The notes under the pieces are model-generated. The model was given only the letters and a program-made list of their open reading frames with translations, was not told the origin of the DNA and made no database searches. The translations under genes and the position numbers were made by a program. A stretch of DNA of 64,000 nucleotides from Bdellovibrio svalbardensis (GTDB lineage: Bacteria; Bdellovibrionota; Bdellovibrionia; Bdellovibrionales; Bdellovibrionaceae): NCBI RefSeq assembly GCF_029531655.1, contig NZ_JANRMI010000001.1, positions 310,001-374,000 on the forward strand, written 5' to 3'. Shown here one piece after another: positions 38,865-50,838 of this stretch. Numbering within the stretch: position 1 is the first letter of the stretch; the number at the start of each line of letters is the position of its first letter.

Positions 38865-39725
38865 TTACTGGCTGTCTTTTTCAGGTTGAGCTTTCAGGTT
38901 GATTCCTTCGCCTTGAGGAACACCCATTTGCTTTCCGGGTTGAACTGCAGGTTTTGATTTTTGGGATTGCGCGATCACGTTTTGCTGGCCGGTGGGTACT
39001 GATGCAAAAAGTGTTTTTAAGATCGTGCTGCTGTAAGGCTGTCCGGTGGTGGCATCATTGGGAGTCGCAACAAGCTCCGTTGTCACTCCTTGCCCCATGG
39101 CGTTGGTGCCAAGAACTTCACCGCGTTCGTTGACGTAACTCAAGAACTTGCTGTCTTTGAAGGTGTTCAAGATCTTGAAAGCTTTAAAGCCGTTGTAGGT
39201 TTCTTCTTTGCCCACCAAGGCTTGGCCTTTGTAAATGCCACCATCTTCTTCGGCTATGGCTTGATACTCATACTTTGTTTCCGAGCGCAGGCCATCTTTG
39301 CTTTTGAGCATCAGGTAAACCAAGAAAGTGGAAAGGAAAGTTCCTTTGGGAATCTTCTTTTCAAAACGCTGAATCTTACCGTTGGTTTTAACTACAGCAC
39401 TGAGGTTTCCTGCCTTGAAACGAGCGTCGATGGTTTTGACTTCTTTGCCCGCAAGACTTGTGTATTCGTAAGAGATAGGAGCCAGTTCAGAATCGGCAAC
39501 GGCCTTCAAACTTTCGGTAACTTCCGAAGAGCCTTTTCCTGTTTTCAGAATGTACGTGGATAGGAACTGTTTTTTCTTAGCGTCGAATTCATAACGGCTG
39601 ACGATATAGCCGATGTGTTGGTCCCCGGCTAGAATCTTGGAATATCCTTCGAAAAGCACATCAGCATGGGAGCTGAGTGGCAAAAGCAGGATAGATAAAA
39701 TGAATGCAAAATACGTACGGACCAT
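38865..39725 (-). CDS. Exported hypothetical protein, 286 aa
   Basis: Signal peptide ending near PLSSHA (residue 21), then a beta-rich domain (LFEGYSKILAGDQHIGYIVS, YILKTGKGSSEVTESLKAVA). The C-terminal 60 residues are rich in Gln, Pro and Lys and probably disordered. The repeating antiparallel pattern recalls DUF3108-type periplasmic proteins, but I cannot confirm this. It starts just upstream of nagZ (24-base gap), so it may be transcribed with it. Confidence 0.75.
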   Translation of the reverse strand: MVRTYFAFILSILLLPLSSHADVLFEGYSKILAGDQHIGYIVSRYEFDAKKKQFLSTYILKTGKGSSEVTESLKAVADSELAPISYEYTSLAGKEVKTIDARFKAGNLSAVVKTNGKIQRFEKKIPKGTFLSTFLVYLMLKSKDGLRSETKYEYQAIAEEDGGIYKGQALVGKEETYNGFKAFKILNTFKDSKFLSYVNERGEVLGTNAMGQGVTTELVATPNDATTGQPYSSTILKTLFASVPTGQQNVIAQSQKSKPAVQPGKQMGVPQGEGINLKAQPEKDSQ

Positions 39726-39899
39726 AGTCGAGTTCCCTTCGTAGAACTATGCAAGAAAGTCTGTCATCTCACTATAGAACAGTCAAAGTTTTCGAGGTCG
39801 AGGTGATTTTCACTTTTGCTTCGCCAAGAGCAAGGGTCTTGCCTCTGGGGACTCTATGCGCGACAATGTTTACACACAAATGCACTTTGATTGAGGCTC

Positions 39900-42119
39900 A
39901 TGCTTAAGAACAACCACAGTACTTTCATTTTGAGTTTGAAAAGTCGCAAGGGCCAAGTTGCTCTATTCGTGGCGTTGATTTTTCAAATTCTGTTTTTGTT
40001 CTTCGCAATGGTCATCAATGTCGGTCTTTTGGTTCATCATAAAATCAACCTGCAGAATTCCGTGGATCTTGCGGCATACTATGGGGCCGCGAAACAGGCA
40101 GAGAATCTGAACGCGATCGGACATATGAATTATCAGATTCGTCAAAGCTGGAAGTTGTTGGCTTGGCGGTATCGGATGTTGGGGAGTGGCGGTGAGTTCG
40201 AGTACCACCCGTTTAAAAAGCCAAATCCGCCTCACTTGGATGAGTCCCAAGCGTATGAAGGTATTGCGAATGAAAACACAGATCCAATTCGCAATGGATT
40301 TCAAGAGGCTCCAGCATTTTGTATTACTTATATTCCCTTTAAACCTATGCCAAAGGATGAAAACACCTGCAAGTACATGGCCTCAAGAAGCGGTGTGAAA
40401 CTTTTCCGACCACCAAAGCATTTTGGTTTTTTGCAAGTTACGGCGACAGTAACATCGATTTCCAATCGACTTCTGGATCGAGCTCAAGAGCGATGTCGCG
40501 CATTCGGTTCATATAACTATCTTATGCTGGGGAAGTTTGTCGTTGCATATAACGCCGATCAACGCGATCGCATGATTGTGATTAACGAACTTTCCAGAAC
40601 AATGAGCTCTAGTGTCGAAGATTTTTATGACCTGGATGGAGAAAGTGTTAGCACCGGAGTAAAGAATACTTTTCAAAATAATCTGACAGCACCGAATCGA
40701 AGCGCGGTTACTTCTTTCAAAATGCATAATTCGTTGGGCGACCCCAAGTGTGGCGTTACTGGCAACAGTGACCGCCCGGTTAAGTGGTTGAGTCCTATAA
40801 AAATTTATCCCGGATTTTCCTATATCGATACAAAGTGTGATCGTCAGCGAATCGATACTGTTGGCAAAGAGTTCAATGCATCCAGAGATGAAGACGATAA
40901 GGGTGTACCTATTCACTACAAAGATGGAACTGTTGATCCAAGTCTTGCGAGCGGTATCAATGAACTCCTTCCTTACATTGGGTATCGCTCAAACTTAGTT
41001 GATACTTATAATTTTTCTTTGGGTGTTGAAAAGAACCCTTGGTGCATGGCCTATGTAGGAGTTTCTGCGGAGACTCAGCCAGTGATTCCATTTTCTCCAT
41101 TTGGTAAAGTTACTTTGAAAGCGCGTTCCTTCGTTAAGCCATTTGGTGGGCGGATTGGTCCTTGGTATTCAGATCGGTGGAGTCGCCGCGACATGGACGC
41201 TCAGAATTCAGATGGTAATAATAGAACAGATGACTTGATCCCACCTCGTGTTTCGGATCTTGCCAGTTTGACGACGGGAATGGCTGATCCAAAAGTTTTA
41301 AAATGGCGTGCAGCAAATTATAGTCGGTATGTTGGCGATCCTTACGGATTGAAGTCAGCAATGATGATTGGTAATTATGGAAAAAGTATTTATGAATTGG
41401 ATCCGGCCTGGGCTCCACTTCCTCAGGGCAACAGTCCCAATGCAGACATGGGATCAAACGTAGATATTTACAATGGATCCAATCCTCCGAACTTTGCTGA
41501 TTGGGACGCATTGCCTTTTAACTACGCGCAAACCACTGGCGACATTCTTGCTTGGGCAAAGGATCAACCATCAAAGATGCGACTTCTTGAAATGTCAGCC
41601 GTGGCTCCCAATGCATTTGACATCGCATATTATTCGATTGAGCCAGACTTCTATCACAACTATTTCACCAGAATGCGGGATGGATTCATTAGGAAGGTCG
41701 GCTCTTCAGTCGCAAAAAGTTTCAGACCCGATATTGGCTATCATAAAGGTTTTAGAGTTGGTGCTTATAACTTCGATGAGTTTTCTGTAAAAGATCAAAT
41801 TGCGGAAGTCGGGGGGATTGTTGAATCAATGCTACCGATTAAAAGTAAATTTACTTACTCGGTGTTAAATTGGAAGAATTTATTGACGGGTTGGGGAAGT
41901 AAAAACCTCAAAGACTACTCTCTCAATCCGGGAACCTTCGGCAATTGCACATCGGAGCCTGTTGGCGGAGTCCCGAATCCAGGTAATTGCGTGGTTGGCG
42001 GGTCTACAGGGTATTCGGTGAAGATGGTGTCTTCTGACTACTTAAGTTCAGAGTTGCAGCTTGGCGGCGAGAATACGGGTAAAGGAAAGATCTTAAACTT
42101 ACCACCGAGCGACTTTTAA
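39900..42119 (+). CDS. TadG/TadE-like exported protein, 739 aa
   Basis: The N terminus has the Tad minor-pilin layout: SRKGQVALFVALIFQILFLF, one membrane helix ending near residue 35, then NLQNSVDLAAYYGAAKQAEN, the pattern of TadE/TadG proteins processed or anchored at the inner membrane. The long remaining part (about 650 residues) is soluble, with scattered Cys pairs and many aromatic residues; no domain is recognised. I prefer ATG 39900; a TTG nine bases earlier is possible. Two Gly-rich exported proteins follow in the same direction, so they may form one surface system. Confidence 0.75.
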   Translation: MLKNNHSTFILSLKSRKGQVALFVALIFQILFLFFAMVINVGLLVHHKINLQNSVDLAAYYGAAKQAENLNAIGHMNYQIRQSWKLLAWRYRMLGSGGEFEYHPFKKPNPPHLDESQAYEGIANENTDPIRNGFQEAPAFCITYIPFKPMPKDENTCKYMASRSGVKLFRPPKHFGFLQVTATVTSISNRLLDRAQERCRAFGSYNYLMLGKFVVAYNADQRDRMIVINELSRTMSSSVEDFYDLDGESVSTGVKNTFQNNLTAPNRSAVTSFKMHNSLGDPKCGVTGNSDRPVKWLSPIKIYPGFSYIDTKCDRQRIDTVGKEFNASRDEDDKGVPIHYKDGTVDPSLASGINELLPYIGYRSNLVDTYNFSLGVEKNPWCMAYVGVSAETQPVIPFSPFGKVTLKARSFVKPFGGRIGPWYSDRWSRRDMDAQNSDGNNRTDDLIPPRVSDLASLTTGMADPKVLKWRAANYSRYVGDPYGLKSAMMIGNYGKSIYELDPAWAPLPQGNSPNADMGSNVDIYNGSNPPNFADWDALPFNYAQTTGDILAWAKDQPSKMRLLEMSAVAPNAFDIAYYSIEPDFYHNYFTRMRDGFIRKVGSSVAKSFRPDIGYHKGFRVGAYNFDEFSVKDQIAEVGGIVESMLPIKSKFTYSVLNWKNLLTGWGSKNLKDYSLNPGTFGNCTSEPVGGVPNPGNCVVGGSTGYSVKMVSSDYLSSELQLGGENTGKGKILNLPPSDF

Positions 42120-42203
42120 TCTAACCGTCTCATTCTGATACAAATCTAAATAATTTTAAGATTGTCTGACTTTTGTCCGAAAAGCAGGACATAGGGGAAT
42201 CTT

Positions 42204-43676
42204 ATGAAAAAGTTAGGTGTGTGTTTACTCACTGCTTTTATTTTTGGTGTGTTTGCGACATCACCGTATGCTTTTGGTGACGAATCCGCCACAAAGGCAC
42301 CCGTAACAGATAAGTCTGATATTCAGAGCGCACGTGAAGCCGCTGATGGCGGCTATGACAAAGAGGCAGGTGACGTTAAAGCAATGCTTGCTGAAATCAA
42401 CCAATTGGCGGTGAGCATTACTGAAGCGCAGGCGCAGATTCCAAGAGCTGCAATTAAAAAGGCTCTAGGTCATGCAGGATATTACAGTATGTATCACGGT
42501 ACGTGTACTTCTACCCAATCCACAGCGGGCGATATTTGCCGTGAGAGAACCAGTCCCCAGCTTCAAAATACGTTGAACTCCATTAATACTGTGGCGAGTA
42601 TGATTACCGGTGTAGCGGTTAAGGATTCATGCAGTACTTTTGCGAAAATTGCTAAACTTGGTCAGATGGGATTAACTGCTTACACTGCTGCATGTTCAGC
42701 TGCTCGAGCTGCATGTGAGGCCTCTTGTTCTACAGTTAAATCAAATTTAGACTCGTTAATTAATTCAAAGATAGAAACATTTTCTACATGTATTCCTCAA
42801 GGGCTTAACGCCGATTTAATAGCAAACAAGGTTTTGTGCGAAAAATATTCTGCTCAAGTAAATTCTTTGATTTCAAAAATTAACCCAATTCTAACATCGG
42901 ACGCAAAAAAAGAAGATGTGAAATCTGTTGCTATGAAGAATATTGCTTGCACATATGACTATGCAAATATGATCGTCTCTGCGGGAACTGGTATCGCATC
43001 GATGATCGCCGGACTTAAGCAAGGTCAAAGTTGCGATGAGGAATCCAATGGTACAGCGGGAACGACTGCGGCTGCGGATTTGCGAGCGACTTGTGAAAAA
43101 GCTGAGAATGCACAGATGCCAGAGTGTCTGTGCTTAGCGAATCCACGTCTTCCTGGCTGCGCGAATGCTTTGCAAAAAGCAGGTGACTCGTCCACTTCAA
43201 ACTTCTCTGCGTTATCTTCACCAAATGCTGGCGCGGGATCAGATAGATCCGGAGCAGGTTTAGATCTTTCTGGCGGCGATTCAGGTCGGGATCCGGCAAG
43301 TGATTTTAATAAGTCTGCAGATTCCGCCGGTGGCGTTGGTGCACCAACAGGAGGTGGCGCTGGTTTCGGCGGCAGTGGTGGTGGCTTCGGTGGCGGTGGA
43401 GCTGCAGGAGCTGGTGGATCTGACAAGAAAGGTTTGAATGCCAATATTCTTGGCGGATCTAGTGGCGGCGGTGGTGGAGGTGGAAGTTGGGGATCCGGCG
43501 GTTCTTCTTCTGACTCCAAACTTCGCCCTTATCTTCCAGGTGGAGAAAAAGACCCAAATAAAATGGCGGGTCAGCAGAATTGGACCAAAGAAGTTACAGG
43601 TCAAGGTGGCAAGTCGAACTGGGAAAAAGTTCGTGACCGTTATCGCGATAACAACTCGACACTGTTAAATAACTAA
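42204..43676 (+). CDS. Exported Cys-containing Gly-rich protein, 490 aa
   Basis: Signal peptide (MKKLGVCLLTAFIFGVFATS, cleavage near YAFGD). Residues 30-300 are mostly helical, with many cysteines (ACSAARAACEASCS near residue 160; CEKAENAQMPECLCLANPRL near residue 297). Residues 340-440 form a Gly-rich low-complexity region, and the end is basic (NWEKVRDRYRDNN). No family is recognised. RBS AGGGGAA precedes the ATG. It sits 84 bases after the TadG-like gene. Confidence 0.75.
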   Translation: MKKLGVCLLTAFIFGVFATSPYAFGDESATKAPVTDKSDIQSAREAADGGYDKEAGDVKAMLAEINQLAVSITEAQAQIPRAAIKKALGHAGYYSMYHGTCTSTQSTAGDICRERTSPQLQNTLNSINTVASMITGVAVKDSCSTFAKIAKLGQMGLTAYTAACSAARAACEASCSTVKSNLDSLINSKIETFSTCIPQGLNADLIANKVLCEKYSAQVNSLISKINPILTSDAKKEDVKSVAMKNIACTYDYANMIVSAGTGIASMIAGLKQGQSCDEESNGTAGTTAAADLRATCEKAENAQMPECLCLANPRLPGCANALQKAGDSSTSNFSALSSPNAGAGSDRSGAGLDLSGGDSGRDPASDFNKSADSAGGVGAPTGGGAGFGGSGGGFGGGGAAGAGGSDKKGLNANILGGSSGGGGGGGSWGSGGSSSDSKLRPYLPGGEKDPNKMAGQQNWTKEVTGQGGKSNWEKVRDRYRDNNSTLLNN

Positions 43677-43686
43677 AGGGCGCATT

Positions 43687-44667
43687 ATGAAAAAGCAAAT
43701 CACTTCCGGTGTTATTACTTTAAGTTTAATATTTTCGCCCTTGTTAGCTTATTCGGCAACGGGTGTTGAGGATGGGAAAACTGTTTCAGGTACCAGAGAT
43801 AATCAACCAAGCGTAAAAGATGGTGCAGATAAATCCAAGAGTGGAAATGGTTTTGCTCAGGCCGTAAATATGGTAACTGGGGGCGCTCAAGTAGTTATGG
43901 GCGGTGTGATGATTCAGCAAGGCTTTGCATCTACTCCAGCCACTAATTGGTCGTTAGTTGCCATGGGTACGATGGTACTCAGTATGGGGCTTACAAATTT
44001 AGCTCAAGGTAAAGATCACGGTGGCGCTGCTGGTTCGGCTGGAGTTACAGGATTTCAAACGGACGGCTTTGGGGGGCTTACGGAGACCGGCAACACAAAT
44101 GATCCTTATGTGAATGCCGCGACTAAAGATCCAAACTATAAAGCCATCGGATCCACATTAAAAACTCTTGAAGCTCAAGGTGTCTATAATCCAAAAACCG
44201 GTGCTTTTAAAATTGGGGATAAAACCTACAAGTCTTCTGACTTTAGCTCAGCTGGAGCTATGGCCGCAGCAGGCTTTCCGAAAGGGATGATCGACGGCGC
44301 GATGGCGGCAAATGCAGAAGCGGAAAGGAAAGCCCTCGCGAAACTTGAGAAAGTTAAAATTGGTGCTTCAACTGCAGCCAATGGCTACGAAGAAGGTGGC
44401 GGCGGAGGCGGTGGCGCTCCGGTTGGTGATGGCAGTGGGGGAATGGATGATGGTTCTGGTGCCTATGCAGGTGCGGGCGGTGCTGGTCATGGAAAAACAG
44501 GCCTTGAGCGCGATCCTTCAAGTCTTGCCGGCATGTCGAAGAACTATAATGGCGAACCTATCGGGGTTGCTGCTGACAGTATTTTCTTGATGATGAGTCG
44601 TCGTTATAAAGTCAAAGAAAGCCAAGAATCATTCTTTGGTCCTGCTGACTTGGCTTTGCAAAAGTAA
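43687..44667 (+). CDS. Exported Gly-rich protein, 326 aa
   Basis: Signal peptide (LSLIFSPLLAYSAT, cleavage near residue 25). A hydrophobic stretch follows at about 55-105 (VTGGAQVVMGGVMIQQGFAS, then WSLVAMGTMVLSMGLTNLAQ), which may be two membrane hairpins. A helical middle, a Gly-rich segment (about 235-270) and a charged C terminus with SIFLMMSRRYKVKE complete it. It begins ten bases after the previous stop and is almost certainly co-transcribed. The shared plan with its neighbour (signal peptide, Gly-rich region, basic C-terminal motif) suggests one functional unit. Confidence 0.75.
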   Translation: MKKQITSGVITLSLIFSPLLAYSATGVEDGKTVSGTRDNQPSVKDGADKSKSGNGFAQAVNMVTGGAQVVMGGVMIQQGFASTPATNWSLVAMGTMVLSMGLTNLAQGKDHGGAAGSAGVTGFQTDGFGGLTETGNTNDPYVNAATKDPNYKAIGSTLKTLEAQGVYNPKTGAFKIGDKTYKSSDFSSAGAMAAAGFPKGMIDGAMAANAEAERKALAKLEKVKIGASTAANGYEEGGGGGGGAPVGDGSGGMDDGSGAYAGAGGAGHGKTGLERDPSSLAGMSKNYNGEPIGVAADSIFLMMSRRYKVKESQESFFGPADLALQK

Positions 44668-44799: not shown

Positions 44800-45996
44800 A
44801 TGAAGTTGGGTGTTGAAGTTCTATTGAGTGATGTGAAGCGTTTAAAATCTCTTAAGGGCAAACGTGTGGGTTTGATTTGTCATCCGGCCAGCGTTGATGC
44901 GGAACTTAAGCACAGCCTCGATCTTCTTTCCAAAAAAATTAAATTGTCTTGTGCCTTCGGTCCTCAGCACGGTGTGCGTGGTGATAAACAAGATAACATG
45001 ATCGAGAGCCCAAACTTCATTGATCCCGTCCATCAGATTCCTATCTTCAGTCTTTACGGCGAAGTTCGTCGTCCCACTGCAGAGATGATGTCACACTTTG
45101 ATGTTCTGCTTTTTGATCTTCAAGATTTGGGTTGCCGAATCTATACGTTTATCACGACGTTATTGTATGTGATGGAAGAGTGCGCGAAGACTCAAAAGAA
45201 AATCATCATTCTTGATCGTCCTAATCCAGCGGGTCGCGTGATCGAAGGATTCCGTATGCGCCCAGGTTGGGAATCTTTTGTCGGAGCAGCTCCGATTCCA
45301 ATGCGACATGGTCTGACAGTCGGTGAGTTGGCGTTGTACTTCAAAGATTTCTATCAGCTCGATCTTGAACTTGATGTTGTTAAGATGAAAGGCTATGCGC
45401 CTAATAAGGCTCCGGGTTTTGGCTGGGATGTGAAAAGACCTTGGGTGAATCCATCTCCGAATGCGGCTTCCTTGAACATGGCTCGTGCTTATCCAGGAAC
45501 GGTACTGATCGAAGGAACCACACTTTCAGAGGGGCGCGGAACGACCCGAGCATTGGAAGTAATCGGGGCCTCTGATTTGGATTACACAAAGATTTTGGCA
45601 GAGATGAAAAAGAAAGCACCGCAGTGGCATAAAGGCGTGATTTTGCGCGAATGCTATTTCGAGCCGACTTTCCATAAGCATCAAGGCAAACTTTGTCATG
45701 GCTTCCAGTTCCATACAGACTGCGAGTCCTACAACCACGCGCAGTTTAAGCCCTTCCGATTAGTGGCTTTGATGTTGAAAGTGATCCGTGAACTTTATCC
45801 TGATTATCCAATTTATCGTGATTTCGCTTACGAGTATGTTCACAACAAACTTGCTTTTGATGTCATTAATGGCGGACCTGAATTGAAAAACTGGATTGAG
45901 AAGAAGAATGCCAAGCCAGCGGACCTAGATAAAGAACTTCTAAAAGACGAGAAGTCTTGGGCTAAAGAGAGCAAAAAATATTTGCTCTACAAATAA
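44800..45996 (+). CDS. namZ: Exo-beta-N-acetylmuramidase NamZ family (DUF1343)
   Basis: A GH171/DUF1343 enzyme, in characterised members cutting terminal MurNAc from muropeptide glycans. The 398 residues open KLGVEVLLSDVKRLKSLKGK and show the family stretches GPQHGVRGDKQDN (about residue 54), VLLFDLQDLGCRIYTFITTL (about 106-125) and LDRPNPAGR (about 143). YPGTVLIEGTTLSEGRGTTR lies near residue 230. No signal peptide is visible, unlike many characterised homologues, so action on imported fragments is likely. It converges with murU, which acts later on the same sugar. Confidence 0.88.
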   Translation: MKLGVEVLLSDVKRLKSLKGKRVGLICHPASVDAELKHSLDLLSKKIKLSCAFGPQHGVRGDKQDNMIESPNFIDPVHQIPIFSLYGEVRRPTAEMMSHFDVLLFDLQDLGCRIYTFITTLLYVMEECAKTQKKIIILDRPNPAGRVIEGFRMRPGWESFVGAAPIPMRHGLTVGELALYFKDFYQLDLELDVVKMKGYAPNKAPGFGWDVKRPWVNPSPNAASLNMARAYPGTVLIEGTTLSEGRGTTRALEVIGASDLDYTKILAEMKKKAPQWHKGVILRECYFEPTFHKHQGKLCHGFQFHTDCESYNHAQFKPFRLVALMLKVIRELYPDYPIYRDFAYEYVHNKLAFDVINGGPELKNWIEKKNAKPADLDKELLKDEKSWAKESKKYLLYK

Positions 45997-48077: not shown

Positions 48078-48947
48078 TTATGCGTCTATCGGGCCATCTT
48101 TCATAAAGAACAGCTCGAGAACTTCTTTGAGTCCTTGAGTCGTCAATGGAGCGCGATCGACCTCAAAGCAGTTTACAGAAAGTTCGTCGATCAAACCTGC
48201 AGACAATGTTTCGACAGTTTCAAGCTCTCCGGCGTTCATTTTCGAGCTGGTGATGATCAAAGGTTCATCGGCAGAACGCTCTTCTGCAAGGTATTCCATC
48301 AATAGTTCTTGTTCGGCAGCATTCAAAGTTTCAACGTTTTCGATAAAGATCGTCATTCCACCCAATTTTGCAATGTCATAGGATGAGTGAAGTTGTCCTT
48401 TGATGTCATTGAAAGGAACAAAAGCCCAACGGCCGGTCATTTCATGTAGAAGTAGAGCCACTTTTTTGTTGGTGGTTTCCGTGCGTCCCTCTAAATGAAT
48501 AAGGTTTGAAATCAAATCGAAACTTAGACCTTTGGCGAGGTCCGTATCTTCTTTGATGAGATCATCTATTGAGGGCATTTCTTCCGCGAACAAATGCACG
48601 TTATCCAGATTTAGGTTCGCTTTGCTGATTTCAGCAAGATTGGCTTCGCGTTGATCGAGATACCACTTGTACATCGCTGGTTCCAAAACCATGCGAATTA
48701 ACTGAGTCACCCCTTGGCGTTTTTCCTGATTCAAGTCGTCTGCAGAAGGAACAACGGCGGTCCCCAAAAGCGCGCCGTTGACCTTGATAGGAACATGCAA
48801 ATCACGCCCCCGCGTGTAAGCATCTTCTTCTGATTGAAGCTCTGAAAGATCCATCAACTGACGAATCTGTAAACCCTTCCCATAGCGGTTTGATAAAATC
48901 TGCTTCAAGCGATTCACGAATGAACTATCTAACGTTGAGTTCTGCAT
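48078..48947 (-). CDS. Degenerate sigma54-activator-like protein heading amgK-murU
   Basis: A 289-residue protein. Residues 1-95 look like a GAF/PocR-type sensor. The second half resembles the AAA+ core of sigma54 activators, reading GGMTIFIENVETLNAAEQEL where such proteins have the GGTLFLDEI Walker B. No Walker A is visible, no GAFTGA loop is visible, and there is no C-terminal Fis-type HTH. It should therefore not hydrolyse ATP or open sigma54 promoters by itself. It is the first gene of the amgK-murU run and is next to a complete sigma54 activator, which suggests a sensor or partner protein. Confidence 0.72.
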   Translation of the reverse strand: MQNSTLDSSFVNRLKQILSNRYGKGLQIRQLMDLSELQSEEDAYTRGRDLHVPIKVNGALLGTAVVPSADDLNQEKRQGVTQLIRMVLEPAMYKWYLDQREANLAEISKANLNLDNVHLFAEEMPSIDDLIKEDTDLAKGLSFDLISNLIHLEGRTETTNKKVALLLHEMTGRWAFVPFNDIKGQLHSSYDIAKLGGMTIFIENVETLNAAEQELLMEYLAEERSADEPLIITSSKMNAGELETVETLSAGLIDELSVNCFEVDRAPLTTQGLKEVLELFFMKDGPIDA

Positions 48948-49281: not shown

Positions 49282-50838
49282 TTAACGAGCTAGTTTGCGT
49301 TTATCAAGGCCGTATTTCTCAACCTTCATAATCAAACCAGCGCGACTGATGCCAAGTTCTTTCGCAAGTTTGGATTTATTCCAACCTGTGCGGCGTAGAC
49401 CCTCGCGGATCATCTCGCGTTCAAGATCTTCCAAGGCGTCTTTCAACTTACCTTGCAAACGAGAACCTTGAACCTTGTTCTTTTCGCCAGCTTCCAAAAC
49501 TTTTGGAGAAAGAAGTTCCGCCATCAATTTTGTTTCTTCGCCAGAAAGAACACAAAGTCTTTCGATTTCATTTTGCAATTCACGCACGTTACCTGGCCAT
49601 GGATAGTCATACAACTTTTCCAAAGCACGTTTCGTCAACTGGCGTTTTGGTCCGCCTTGTTGTTCGTGAATTTTATTAAGGAAGAAATCCGTCAAGAAAG
49701 GAATGTCTTCTTTTCTTTCTCTAAGTGGTGGCACGCGAATGTTGATAACATTCAAGCGATAGTACAAGTCCTCACGGAACGTACCTTGCTCAACCATCTC
49801 CTTCAAATTTCTATTCGTCGCCGCCACGATACGTACGTCAACTTTTCTGGATTCAGTTGCGCCCACTGGCATGAAAGTGCCTTCTTGCAATACACGAAGA
49901 AGCTTAACTTGCATTTGTGGTGATGTATCACCGATCTCATCCAGGAAGAATGTTCCTTTGTCGGCCATTTCGAAAAGACCTTTTTTGTCTTTCAAAGCGC
50001 CGGTGAAAGAACCCTTCATGTGACCGAATAGTTCTGATTCTAAAAGATTATCATTGAAGGCAGAACAGTTCTGAATGATGAATGGCTTGTCTTTGCGGTT
50101 GGAGTTGTAGTGGATCGATTTCGCGATCAACTCTTTACCTGTACCGTTTTCCCCTTGTACAAGCACTGTAGAATCAGCGCCTTTGATTTTGTCCATCAAA
50201 GCGTACAAAGATTGCATTGGTTTAGATTTACCGATCATGTTGTCGTATTTAAATCTGTTACCCAACTCTTTATTAAGCTCTTTAATGCGATCTTCACGTG
50301 AAGAGATTTCCAAGTGAAGAGTCACGATCTCCTGAGCCACCAGTTCACAAATCTCAGTGAAGTGAGTGCGGTCTTGATCATCAAGGAACTTCAATTTGCC
50401 CAAGCATTTTTCGATCACTTCGCCAGACATGCCAAAAGCAGCCAGACGGTCGCGGATCTCTTGCAAGCGGGAAGTGAAGTTTGAATCGCGGAAGAAGCCC
50501 ATCGCAACAACAGTACCCACGCAATCATTTTCAATCATGATTGGGAACACGCCGACGTCAAAACCAACCATATCCCATTTACGGATGCTGAAACGGTTTT
50601 GTGAAGTGCGAAGATCATCCAAAGATTTAGATACAAGTTCAGCAATGCTTGATTGACCAGCTTCTTTGTTTACAAGAGCTGCGATAGCTGGATTATTGAA
50701 ACCCGCTTTATCAGAGTCATAGCCCTTAAGCATTCCACGCTCATCAGTGAATACCACATCGATATTCCACCAAGCGCTGAGGATATGTTTGAGCTTCTTG
50801 ATCACGTGTATGTGTTCAAACTCATCCCAATTAATCAT
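49282..50838 (-). CDS. Sigma54-dependent transcriptional activator (NtrC-type AAA+)
   Basis: A 518-residue regulator. The N-terminal sensor (1-170) resembles PocR/GAF ligand domains (MINWDEFEHIHVIKKLKHIL, IENDCVGTVVAMGFF). The AAA+ core from about 205 to 440 has Walker A GENGTGKE, Walker B GTFFLDEIGD and sensor LREDLYYRLNVI. The sigma54-contact loop reads GSFTGA in place of GAFTGA, a known tolerated variant. A C-terminal Fis-type HTH (LGISRAGLIMKVEKYGL) binds DNA. There is no receiver domain, so a small ligand or partner protein should control it. GGGACGG precedes ATG 50838. Confidence 0.93.
   Translation of the reverse strand: MINWDEFEHIHVIKKLKHILSAWWNIDVVFTDERGMLKGYDSDKAGFNNPAIAALVNKEAGQSSIAELVSKSLDDLRTSQNRFSIRKWDMVGFDVGVFPIMIENDCVGTVVAMGFFRDSNFTSRLQEIRDRLAAFGMSGEVIEKCLGKLKFLDDQDRTHFTEICELVAQEIVTLHLEISSREDRIKELNKELGNRFKYDNMIGKSKPMQSLYALMDKIKGADSTVLVQGENGTGKELIAKSIHYNSNRKDKPFIIQNCSAFNDNLLESELFGHMKGSFTGALKDKKGLFEMADKGTFFLDEIGDTSPQMQVKLLRVLQEGTFMPVGATESRKVDVRIVAATNRNLKEMVEQGTFREDLYYRLNVINIRVPPLRERKEDIPFLTDFFLNKIHEQQGGPKRQLTKRALEKLYDYPWPGNVRELQNEIERLCVLSGEETKLMAELLSPKVLEAGEKNKVQGSRLQGKLKDALEDLEREMIREGLRRTGWNKSKLAKELGISRAGLIMKVEKYGLDKRKLAR

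What the first reader, a model, noticed from the sequence alone, without database searches (positions are those of the whole stretch)
39900..44667. Three-gene operon: TadG-like protein plus two Gly-rich exported proteins, no recognised family
A Tad minor-pilin-like protein with a 650-residue soluble domain is followed by two exported proteins. These share a plan: signal peptide, helical Cys-containing or hydrophobic part, Gly-rich low-complexity block, and a basic C-terminal motif (NWEKVRDRY; SIFLMMSRRYK). No ATPase, pilin or secretin is nearby. The layout suggests a surface or envelope assembly specific to this lineage, perhaps using Tad machinery encoded elsewhere. This is the best candidate for an undescribed system in the window.
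Basis: partly seen in the sequence, partly recalled or inferred. Interest (0 to 1): 0.66.

Follow-up and report, generated by a model that had tools for sequence, protein, structure and literature searches.

The report
Bdellovibrio pilus-tip-like predation operon
Three neighbouring genes of a predatory bacterium make a large pilus-tip-like protein and two exported proteins that end in the same tail, and a published mutant that most likely hits the third gene can no longer grip its prey, so this may be a previously unnamed part of the prey-attachment machinery.

Summary
The three-gene operon is real (P1 39900-42119, P2 42204-43676, P3 43687-44667, all +). P1 is a TadG/KilN-type protein: a PF13400 N-terminus plus a confidently modelled ~650-residue domain with no PDB relative found. 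It is not a small-lineage oddity: 328 of 368 Bdellovibrionota genomes have it. The genome carries a Tad/Kil cluster ~236 kb away with RcpC and three small pilin-like genes, but no TadG was seen there; P1 is the genome's only PF13400 protein over cut-off. P2 (helical, 12 conserved Cys) and P3 match no family. They share a homologous ~40-residue C-terminal module, found in only four proteins of this genome (P2, P3, two P2 paralogues). In 44 of 52 scorable order-level loci P2 and P3 lie beside P1. Mapping to B. bacteriovorus HD100 makes P1-P2-P3 most likely Bd0148-Bd0149-Bd0150; Bd0150::tn is a published class I mutant (no attachment, killing or rounding). Best reading: an orphan Tad/Kil tip subunit with two accessory exported proteins, working in prey attachment. 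The Tad link and the role of the shared tail are inferred. A Bdellovibrio Tad tip was predicted in 2025, but I could not see which genes. Novelty: new variant of a known kind.

The parts
39756..39802 (.). Conserved non-coding block between the divergent gene c4 and P1 (AAAGTCTGTCATCTC...GTCAAAGTTTTCGAGGTCGAG), probably regulatory
   Evidence: Nearly invariant down the 21-row genus alignment (window plus 20 loci, L097 skipped for want of the anchor; L101 and L103 only partly); its 21-base core occurs once in the window, 0 expected
39839..39867 (+). Candidate core promoter TTGCCT-N17-GACAAT upstream of P1
   Evidence: By eye from the alignment; the consensus scan did not list it, so weak
39900..42119 (+). 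P1: orphan TadG/KilN-like protein (739 aa from ATG; 742 aa from the TTG at 39891)
   Evidence: PF13400 2.2e-8, all 32 aligned homologues match it; AlphaFold2 mean pLDDT 89.4, pTM 0.90, helix 13-99, second long helix 182-238, then beta; 328 of 368 phylum genomes
39951..40091 (+). PF13400 Tad domain of P1 (residues 21-67); Gly21 invariant
42204..43676 (+). P2: exported, Cys-rich helical protein, Gly-rich linker, C-terminal module (490 aa)
   Evidence: No family; C171, C249, C319 invariant and C101, C112, C143, C164, C175, C277, C297, C308, C310 at 90% or more of 34 sequences; model helical at 37-328, disordered 329-434, C-terminal helix 472-483
43545..43661 (+). Shared C-terminal module in P2 (about residues 448-486)
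   Evidence: hhalign 93.1%, E 3.1e-7 against P3
43687..44667 (+). P3: exported Gly-rich protein with the shared C-terminal module (326 aa); most likely orthologue of Bd0150
   Evidence: No family above cut-off in 33 of 33 members; order-wide; mapping
44506..44625 (+). Shared C-terminal module in P3 (about residues 274-313)
   Evidence: own-genome search finds four carriers at E 1.2e-17 or lower
38865..39725 (-). c4: divergent exported protein, conserved neighbour (DUF3108 only below cut-off)
   Evidence: its cluster lies in 52 of 60 fetched loci

Best explanation
The operon encodes an envelope complex used to attach to prey. P1 is a large TadG/KilN-type minor pilin, the probable backbone of a Tad (Kil-type) pilus tip: it is held in the inner membrane by its N-terminal helix, probably cut after Gly21 and loaded onto a Tad pilus together with the small minor pilins encoded in the Tad cluster 236 kb away, so that its ~650-residue domain faces the prey. 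P2 and P3 are exported through the inner membrane by signal peptides, fold (P2 probably with disulfides) and are tethered through flexible Gly-rich linkers by a common C-terminal docking helix to one shared receptor, for which P1 or an envelope partner is the obvious candidate. Shown here: gene order and conservation, the Tad domain, a confident P1 model, the shared tail, and a Tad cluster in which no TadG was seen. Shown in print if the locus mapping is right: P3 (Bd0150) is needed for attachment. Inferred: pilus incorporation, tip exposure, and the P1-P2-P3 complex.
For: P1 is the only protein over the PF13400 cut-off in the genome. A Tad cluster at G000:C1 ~104.5-113 kb has RcpC and, read by eye, a secretin, CpaE/CpaF-like and TadB-like proteins and three small pilin-like ORFs (88, 222, 173 aa) with G|xxxx[E/D] starts, but no TadG. 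RcpC is in 59 of 59 and P1 in 59 of 59 genomes (own plus 58 relatives). The P1 model (two long helices, beta scaffold, short helices; no PDB match at E 0.001 or better) agrees with the published description of KilN4 (PMC12075869, passages and sections 15-16 read), which also reports a predicted Tip in B. bacteriovorus. P2 and P3 adjoin P1 in 44 of 52 scorable loci. The shared tail is statistically solid and confined to four proteins of the genome. Mapping: in the genome of HD100 length, UvrA is bd0159 (PMC3593177 Table 1); counting back gives P1-P2-P3 as Bd0149-0151 without, or Bd0148-0150 with, one extra tag. The published Bd0149 change G256V (PMC11323537) fits P2 (Gly, GGT at 256), not P1 (Asn), and not P3 from its first start (Trp). 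Hence Bd0150 is most likely P3; Bd0150::tn lacks attachment, killing and rounding, in the same class as TadC Bd0470 and PilT (PMC6561027 Table 2). P3 is followed by a convergent gene in HD100, so polarity is unlikely.
Against: P1 is not in the Tad locus in this genome, nor evidently in the 19 outer loci with a P1 ORF: one has a T2SSF pair about 4.5 kb away, and two have a CpaF-like ATPase about 4-8 kb away. P1 and RcpC are both universal in the 59 genomes, so co-occurrence discriminates nothing. No complex, processing or localisation was tested. P1 lacks the acidic residue at +5 of canonical pilins. In HD100-derived strains, flp1, flp2 and flp4 deletions keep prey adhesion (PMC5430801), whereas Bd0150::tn loses it, so P3 may act outside the Tad pilus. 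Eight of 52 loci have P1 without P2/P3 beside it. Bd0150 is not among the five mutants reported as complemented. The Tn-seq used a 109J host-independent strain. The locus-tag mapping is by counting plus one residue, not by an annotated record.
Confidence: 0.5

Rival explanations
1. The operon is part of peptidoglycan turnover: an inner-membrane-anchored periplasmic assembly (P1 with P2/P3 and c4) that captures or senses muropeptides for the neighbouring recycling enzymes.
For: Within the order the neighbourhood is NagZ, c4, often OppB/OppC, then P1-P3, NamZ or AnmK, a MurU-like and an AmgK-like gene. c4 is divergent from P1 and its cluster lies in 52 of 60 fetched loci. A conserved block, probably regulatory, lies between them.
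Against: In 19 outer loci none of these recycling genes was recognised next to P1. PF13400 and the long N-terminal helix are pilin-like. The probable P3 mutant fails at attachment (PMC6561027).
Confidence: 0.22
2. P2 and P3 are surface or matrix adhesins of their own, anchored by the shared C-terminal tail to an outer-membrane receptor; P1 is a separate envelope protein that happens to be co-transcribed.
For: P2/P3 pairs, P2 alone or P3 alone occur away from P1 (L098, L121, L204, L206-L214), with tandem P2-like arrays beside flagellar rod genes. P1 is phylum-wide, mostly without P2/P3 in the outer loci read. A Bd0149 change occurs in biofilm-forming host-independent strains (PMC11323537).
Against: Strong co-conservation of order and spacing within the order.
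Confidence: 0.22
3. P2 is a secreted pore-forming or toxin-like helical protein delivered to prey by the tip.
For: The best Foldseek rows of the P2 model are ClyA chains (E 0.069, TM 0.20-0.30).
Against: Not significant; helical bundles match each other by chance; rmsd about 10; the model has mean pLDDT 67; the 12 conserved Cys have no counterpart that I recall in ClyA.
Confidence: 0.04

Closest known systems
Kil/Tad pilus Tip complexes of Myxococcus xanthus (KilL-KilM-KilN; TadE/F/G-like)
   Same: Large TadG-type protein with a long N-terminal helix and a C-terminal domain of no known PDB fold; predator; role in prey contact (PMC12075869, passages and sections 15-16 read).
   Different: P1 is encoded far from the Tad cluster and from its small minor pilins, and is followed by two signal-peptide proteins with a shared tail, which the passages I read of the Kil tips do not mention.
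TAD operon bd0109-bd0119 of B. bacteriovorus
   Same: Same organism group; the Tad cluster of this genome corresponds to it.
   Different: P1-P3 are outside it; the passages read (PMC5430801) name TadA, TadB, RcpA, RcpC and Flp1-4, and no TadG.
Bd0150 class I predation mutant (hypothetical gene)
   Same: Most likely the HD100 name of P3.
   Different: Listed in the text read (PMC6561027) as a hypothetical, without family, operon or partner.

Membership tests
TadG/KilN minor pilin (Tad/Kil tip backbone) | N-terminal Tad (PF13400) hydrophobic domain | tested here: met
   2.2e-8 over cut-off; 32 of 32 homologues
TadG/KilN minor pilin (Tad/Kil tip backbone) | Gly directly before the hydrophobic helix (prepilin-peptidase type site) | tested here: met
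   Gly21 invariant in 66 of 66 aligned sequences; cleavage itself not tested
TadG/KilN minor pilin (Tad/Kil tip backbone) | Long first helix plus large modular C-terminal domain | tested here: met
   Model with helix 13-99 and a 650-residue domain, pLDDT 89.4; compared with KilN4 only by its published description
TadG/KilN minor pilin (Tad/Kil tip backbone) | Encoded with TadE/TadF in a tad locus | tested here: not met
   P1 is about 236 kb from the Tad cluster. So it is called TadG-like, not a TadG
TadG/KilN minor pilin (Tad/Kil tip backbone) | A Tad machine in the same genome | tested here: met
   RcpC in 59 of 59 genomes; cluster read
TadG/KilN minor pilin (Tad/Kil tip backbone) | Forms a heteromeric tip with TadE/F-like pilins on a pilus | not testable with these tools
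   Only single-chain prediction was offered; no experiment
TadG/KilN minor pilin (Tad/Kil tip backbone) | Structural relative among solved structures | tested here: inconclusive
   No Foldseek match at E 0.001 or better; best VIA Z 4.5
Known families for P2 and P3 | Any Pfam or NCBIfam family over its curated cut-off | tested here: not met
   (30 P2 and 33 P3 homologues scanned against Pfam; NCBIfam only on the window proteins)

The most novel reading that the evidence does not exclude
P2, P3 and the P2 paralogues are swappable exported modules that dock through one private C-terminal tail onto the TadG-like tip (or its base), so that the predator's Tad pilus carries non-pilin cargo, with different P2-type heads to grip or breach different prey. 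That would be a tail-tagged tip-loading system, which I know from no other Tad pilus.
Probability: 0.18. Interest if true: 0.82.

Novelty: new variant of a known kind. Interest (0 to 1): 0.62.

Why it matters
How Bdellovibrio first grips its prey is an open question; Flp pili are needed for predation, yet flp mutants still adhere (PMC5430801). This analysis ties a phylum-wide TadG-like protein, two family-less exported proteins with a common docking tail, and a published attachment mutant into one operon. That gives directly testable genes (delete each, remove the tails, pull down P1) and a candidate for the missing TadG of the Bdellovibrio Tad/Kil pilus.

Tried and rejected
Foldseek and VIA on the P1 model found no relative. 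Foldseek on the P2 model gave only non-significant helical bundles, ClyA first; kept as a weak rival only. A second TadG-like place in the genome (C4:156220, E 0.08) lies in a locus that, read by eye, is a type II secretion cluster and was not over the PF13400 cut-off, so it was dropped. The promoter and terminator scan found fewer sites than shuffles (5 against 7.6; 3 against 5.0). The conserved upstream block was not found in the Tad, P2-paralogue or flanking HD100 loci scanned, apart from P1 itself; one looser copy appears in L073, a P1 locus.

Literature searches for HD100 tags Bd0140-Bd0145 gave no Bdellovibrio paper, and Bd0148 with Bdellovibrio gave none. Searches for TadG or minor pilin with Bdellovibrio gave the two Kil papers that I used. 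Papers searched only for tags or motAB, without use: PMC10225642, PMC3818213, PMC3464611. That motAB1 is Bd0144/0145 and that HD100 is 3,782,950 bp are recalled, not from a call.

Dropped rows: four loci without a P1 ORF were left out: L062, where my ORF picker preferred an antisense ORF although one search finds P1 there, and L098, L104 and L121, which hold only P2/P3. Four further loci truncated by contig ends were set aside (56 with P1, 52 scored). No 20-kb locus was fetched for G003 and G014 (short contigs). L097 was skipped. L243 had no P1 ORF (19 of 20 used). P2 BLAST counts are inflated in places by Gly-rich matches.
Full report
OBSERVATION. Three ORFs lie head to tail on the + strand: P1 39891/39900-42119, P2 42204-43676, P3 43687-44667, with gaps of 84 and 10 nt. 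P1 carries a Pfam Tad domain (PF13400, 2.2e-8, residues 21-67). P2 and P3 have no family over a cut-off in Pfam or NCBIfam, nor in Pfam for 30 P2 and 33 P3 homologues scanned one by one. The Gly-rich blocks are the two strongest among the 55 window ORFs of 150 aa or more. P2 has 15 Cys, P3 none; 12 P2 Cys columns are invariant or nearly so across 34 sequences.

CONSERVATION. P1 is found in 59 of 59 genomes (own plus 58 relatives, 34 genera), P3 in 50 of 59 and P2 in 40 of 59 by single-sequence search (some P2 hits rest on Gly-rich sequence). With profiles on 60 fetched loci, 56 have a P1 ORF; of 52 not cut off by contig ends, 44 have both P2 and P3 beside P1 (38 in the order P1-P2-P3, the others reordered, duplicated or on the other strand) and 8 have neither. 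A profile of 66 P1 sequences matches 328 of 368 Bdellovibrionota genomes at E 1e-10 or better, 224 of 234 among good assemblies. So P1 is phylum-wide. In 20 loci from outer lineages (19 with a P1 ORF), P2- and P3-like proteins follow P1 in only one (L249; E 0.0017 and 2.3e-5). There [KQ]PFG[GS]R[IV]GP and a C-terminal GYS.K motif are still visible by eye in the four P1 proteins printed. The 79 named loci are labelled Bdellovibrionales or close relatives (Bdellovibrionota, Oligoflexia, Pseudobdellovibrionaceae), apart from a few with vague labels and one filed as Streptomyces.

STRUCTURE OF P1. The AlphaFold2 model from 66 sequences has mean pLDDT 89.4 and pTM 0.90: one helix 13-99, a second long helix 182-238, beta strands 273-445, then short helices. 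No solved structure matches at E 0.001 or better; the best VIA Z is 4.5. PMC12075869 (passages and sections 15-16 read) describes KilN4, a TadG-type protein of the M. xanthus Kil tip, as a pilin-like fold plus a domain of two long helices and a large beta scaffold with no PDB relative, and states that potential Tip complexes were found in B. bacteriovorus. The gene numbers are in a figure and a supplement that I could not see.

TAD MACHINERY. PF13400 is over its cut-off only at P1 in this genome. RcpC/CpaB lies at C1:106326. Around it I read three small pilin-like ORFs (88, 222, 173 aa; starts RG|QFVIE, RG|IISVD, KG|MAIFE), CpaB, a secretin, a CpaE/CpaF-like protein and a TadB-like protein (names by eye). 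No TadG was seen there. RcpC is in 59 of 59 genomes, so presence and absence cannot discriminate. P1 starts KG|QVALF, with Gly21 invariant, without an acid at +5.

SHARED TAIL. Profile-profile comparison aligns the ends of P2 (448-486) and P3 (274-313) with probability 93.1 and E 3.1e-7 (repeated on tails alone with 91.5). The common plan is DP....(hydrophobic)AG, then a G-containing spacer, then S-[NI]-[WF]..(hydrophobic)..RY. In the whole genome only P2, P3 and two tandem P2 paralogues at C3:314.6-317.3 kb carry it (E 1.2e-17 or lower; the next hit has E 1.2). In several Bdellovibrio such P2-like arrays lie beside flagellar rod genes and aspartokinase (names by eye). The P2 model is helical at 37-328, disordered through the Gly-rich block, with a short C-terminal helix 472-483 at the tail. 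So a flexible linker ending in a docking helix is the natural reading; the receptor is unknown.

NEIGHBOURHOOD. NagZ, c4 (exported; DUF3108 only below cut-off), NamZ, and the MurU- and AmgK-like genes flank the operon (for the Pfam matches; MurU and AmgK are names by eye from sequence and order). Outer families of the order add OppB and OppC beside NagZ, and AnmK downstream. This is a peptidoglycan-recycling neighbourhood, and the main rival rests on it; in the outer loci the association was not seen. Between c4 and P1 lies a block of about 47 bp that is nearly invariant in the genus.

LINK TO PUBLISHED MUTANTS. G006 has one contig of 3,782,950 bp, the HD100 length (recalled). Its Tad cluster fits bd0110-bd0113 of PMC5430801 (passages). 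P1-P2-P3 lie at 131949-136742 and UvrA at 145762 (UvrA by similarity to the window ORF and by position). PMC3593177 Table 1 names uvrA bd0159 (a second uvrA is bd2442). Counting back gives P1-P2-P3 as Bd0149-0151, or Bd0148-0150 if one small tag lies between (one search shows a 44-aa ORF there). PMC11323537 reports Bd0149 c.767G>T, G256V. Residue 256 is Gly (GGT) in P2, Asn in P1, and Trp in P3 from its first start (Gly only from two later starts). With the recalled motAB1 = Bd0144/0145 all this agrees on P2 = Bd0149 and P3 = Bd0150. PMC6561027 Table 2 lists Bd0150 (hypothetical) as class I: no attachment, killing or rounding, in a 109J host-independent background. It is not among the five complemented mutants. 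In HD100 the next gene after P3 is convergent, so polar effects are unlikely.

MECHANISM. Most likely P1 is an orphan TadG/KilN-type tip subunit, and P2/P3 are exported accessory proteins tethered by a common tail, working in prey attachment. Shown: operon, conservation, Tad domain, P1 fold, shared tail, and a Tad cluster without a visible TadG. Likely but indirect: P3 needed for attachment. Inferred: incorporation in the Tad pilus, and docking of P2/P3 on P1. Against: P1 is outside the Tad locus, and flp deletions do not lose adhesion (PMC5430801), which leaves room for an attachment role apart from the pilus.

NOVELTY. P1 belongs to a known kind (TadG-like), in an unusual place. The two-partner arrangement with a private docking tail was not found in the papers that I searched; a predicted Bdellovibrio tip is in print.

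Noticed in passing
39756-39802: About 47 bp non-coding block nearly invariant across the genus (21 rows) between c4 and P1; the window copy lacks one base and is followed by an insertion of about 33 nt.
   Followed up: partly
L204:8628-11497; L206:6297-12236; L207:4662-7959; L210:3896-8645: Tandem arrays of two to four P2-like paralogues with the same C-terminal module, beside flagellar rod genes and aspartokinase in several Bdellovibrio.
   Followed up: partly
L097:9309-11572 (G023): P1 is split into two overlapping ORFs in a single-contig genome: a real disruption, a frameshift event or a sequencing error.
   Followed up: no
44800-45996 in the window; L261/L262 in the HD100-length genome: NamZ follows P3 on the same strand in the window but is convergent in the HD100-length genome.
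   Followed up: no
L240, L241, L247, L248, L250, L253-L257 (downstream of P1): In outer lineages P1 is often followed by a protein with a Lys/Ala-rich start and usually an acidic end, and then in several by an HD-domain protein.
   Followed up: no
L177: A contig filed as Streptomyces griseus MAG carries the Bdellovibrio-type P1-P2-P3 and is probably mislabelled.
   Followed up: no
48078-48947 and 49282-50838: Two neighbouring sigma-54-activator-type genes of unequal completeness lie downstream of the recycling genes.
   Followed up: no
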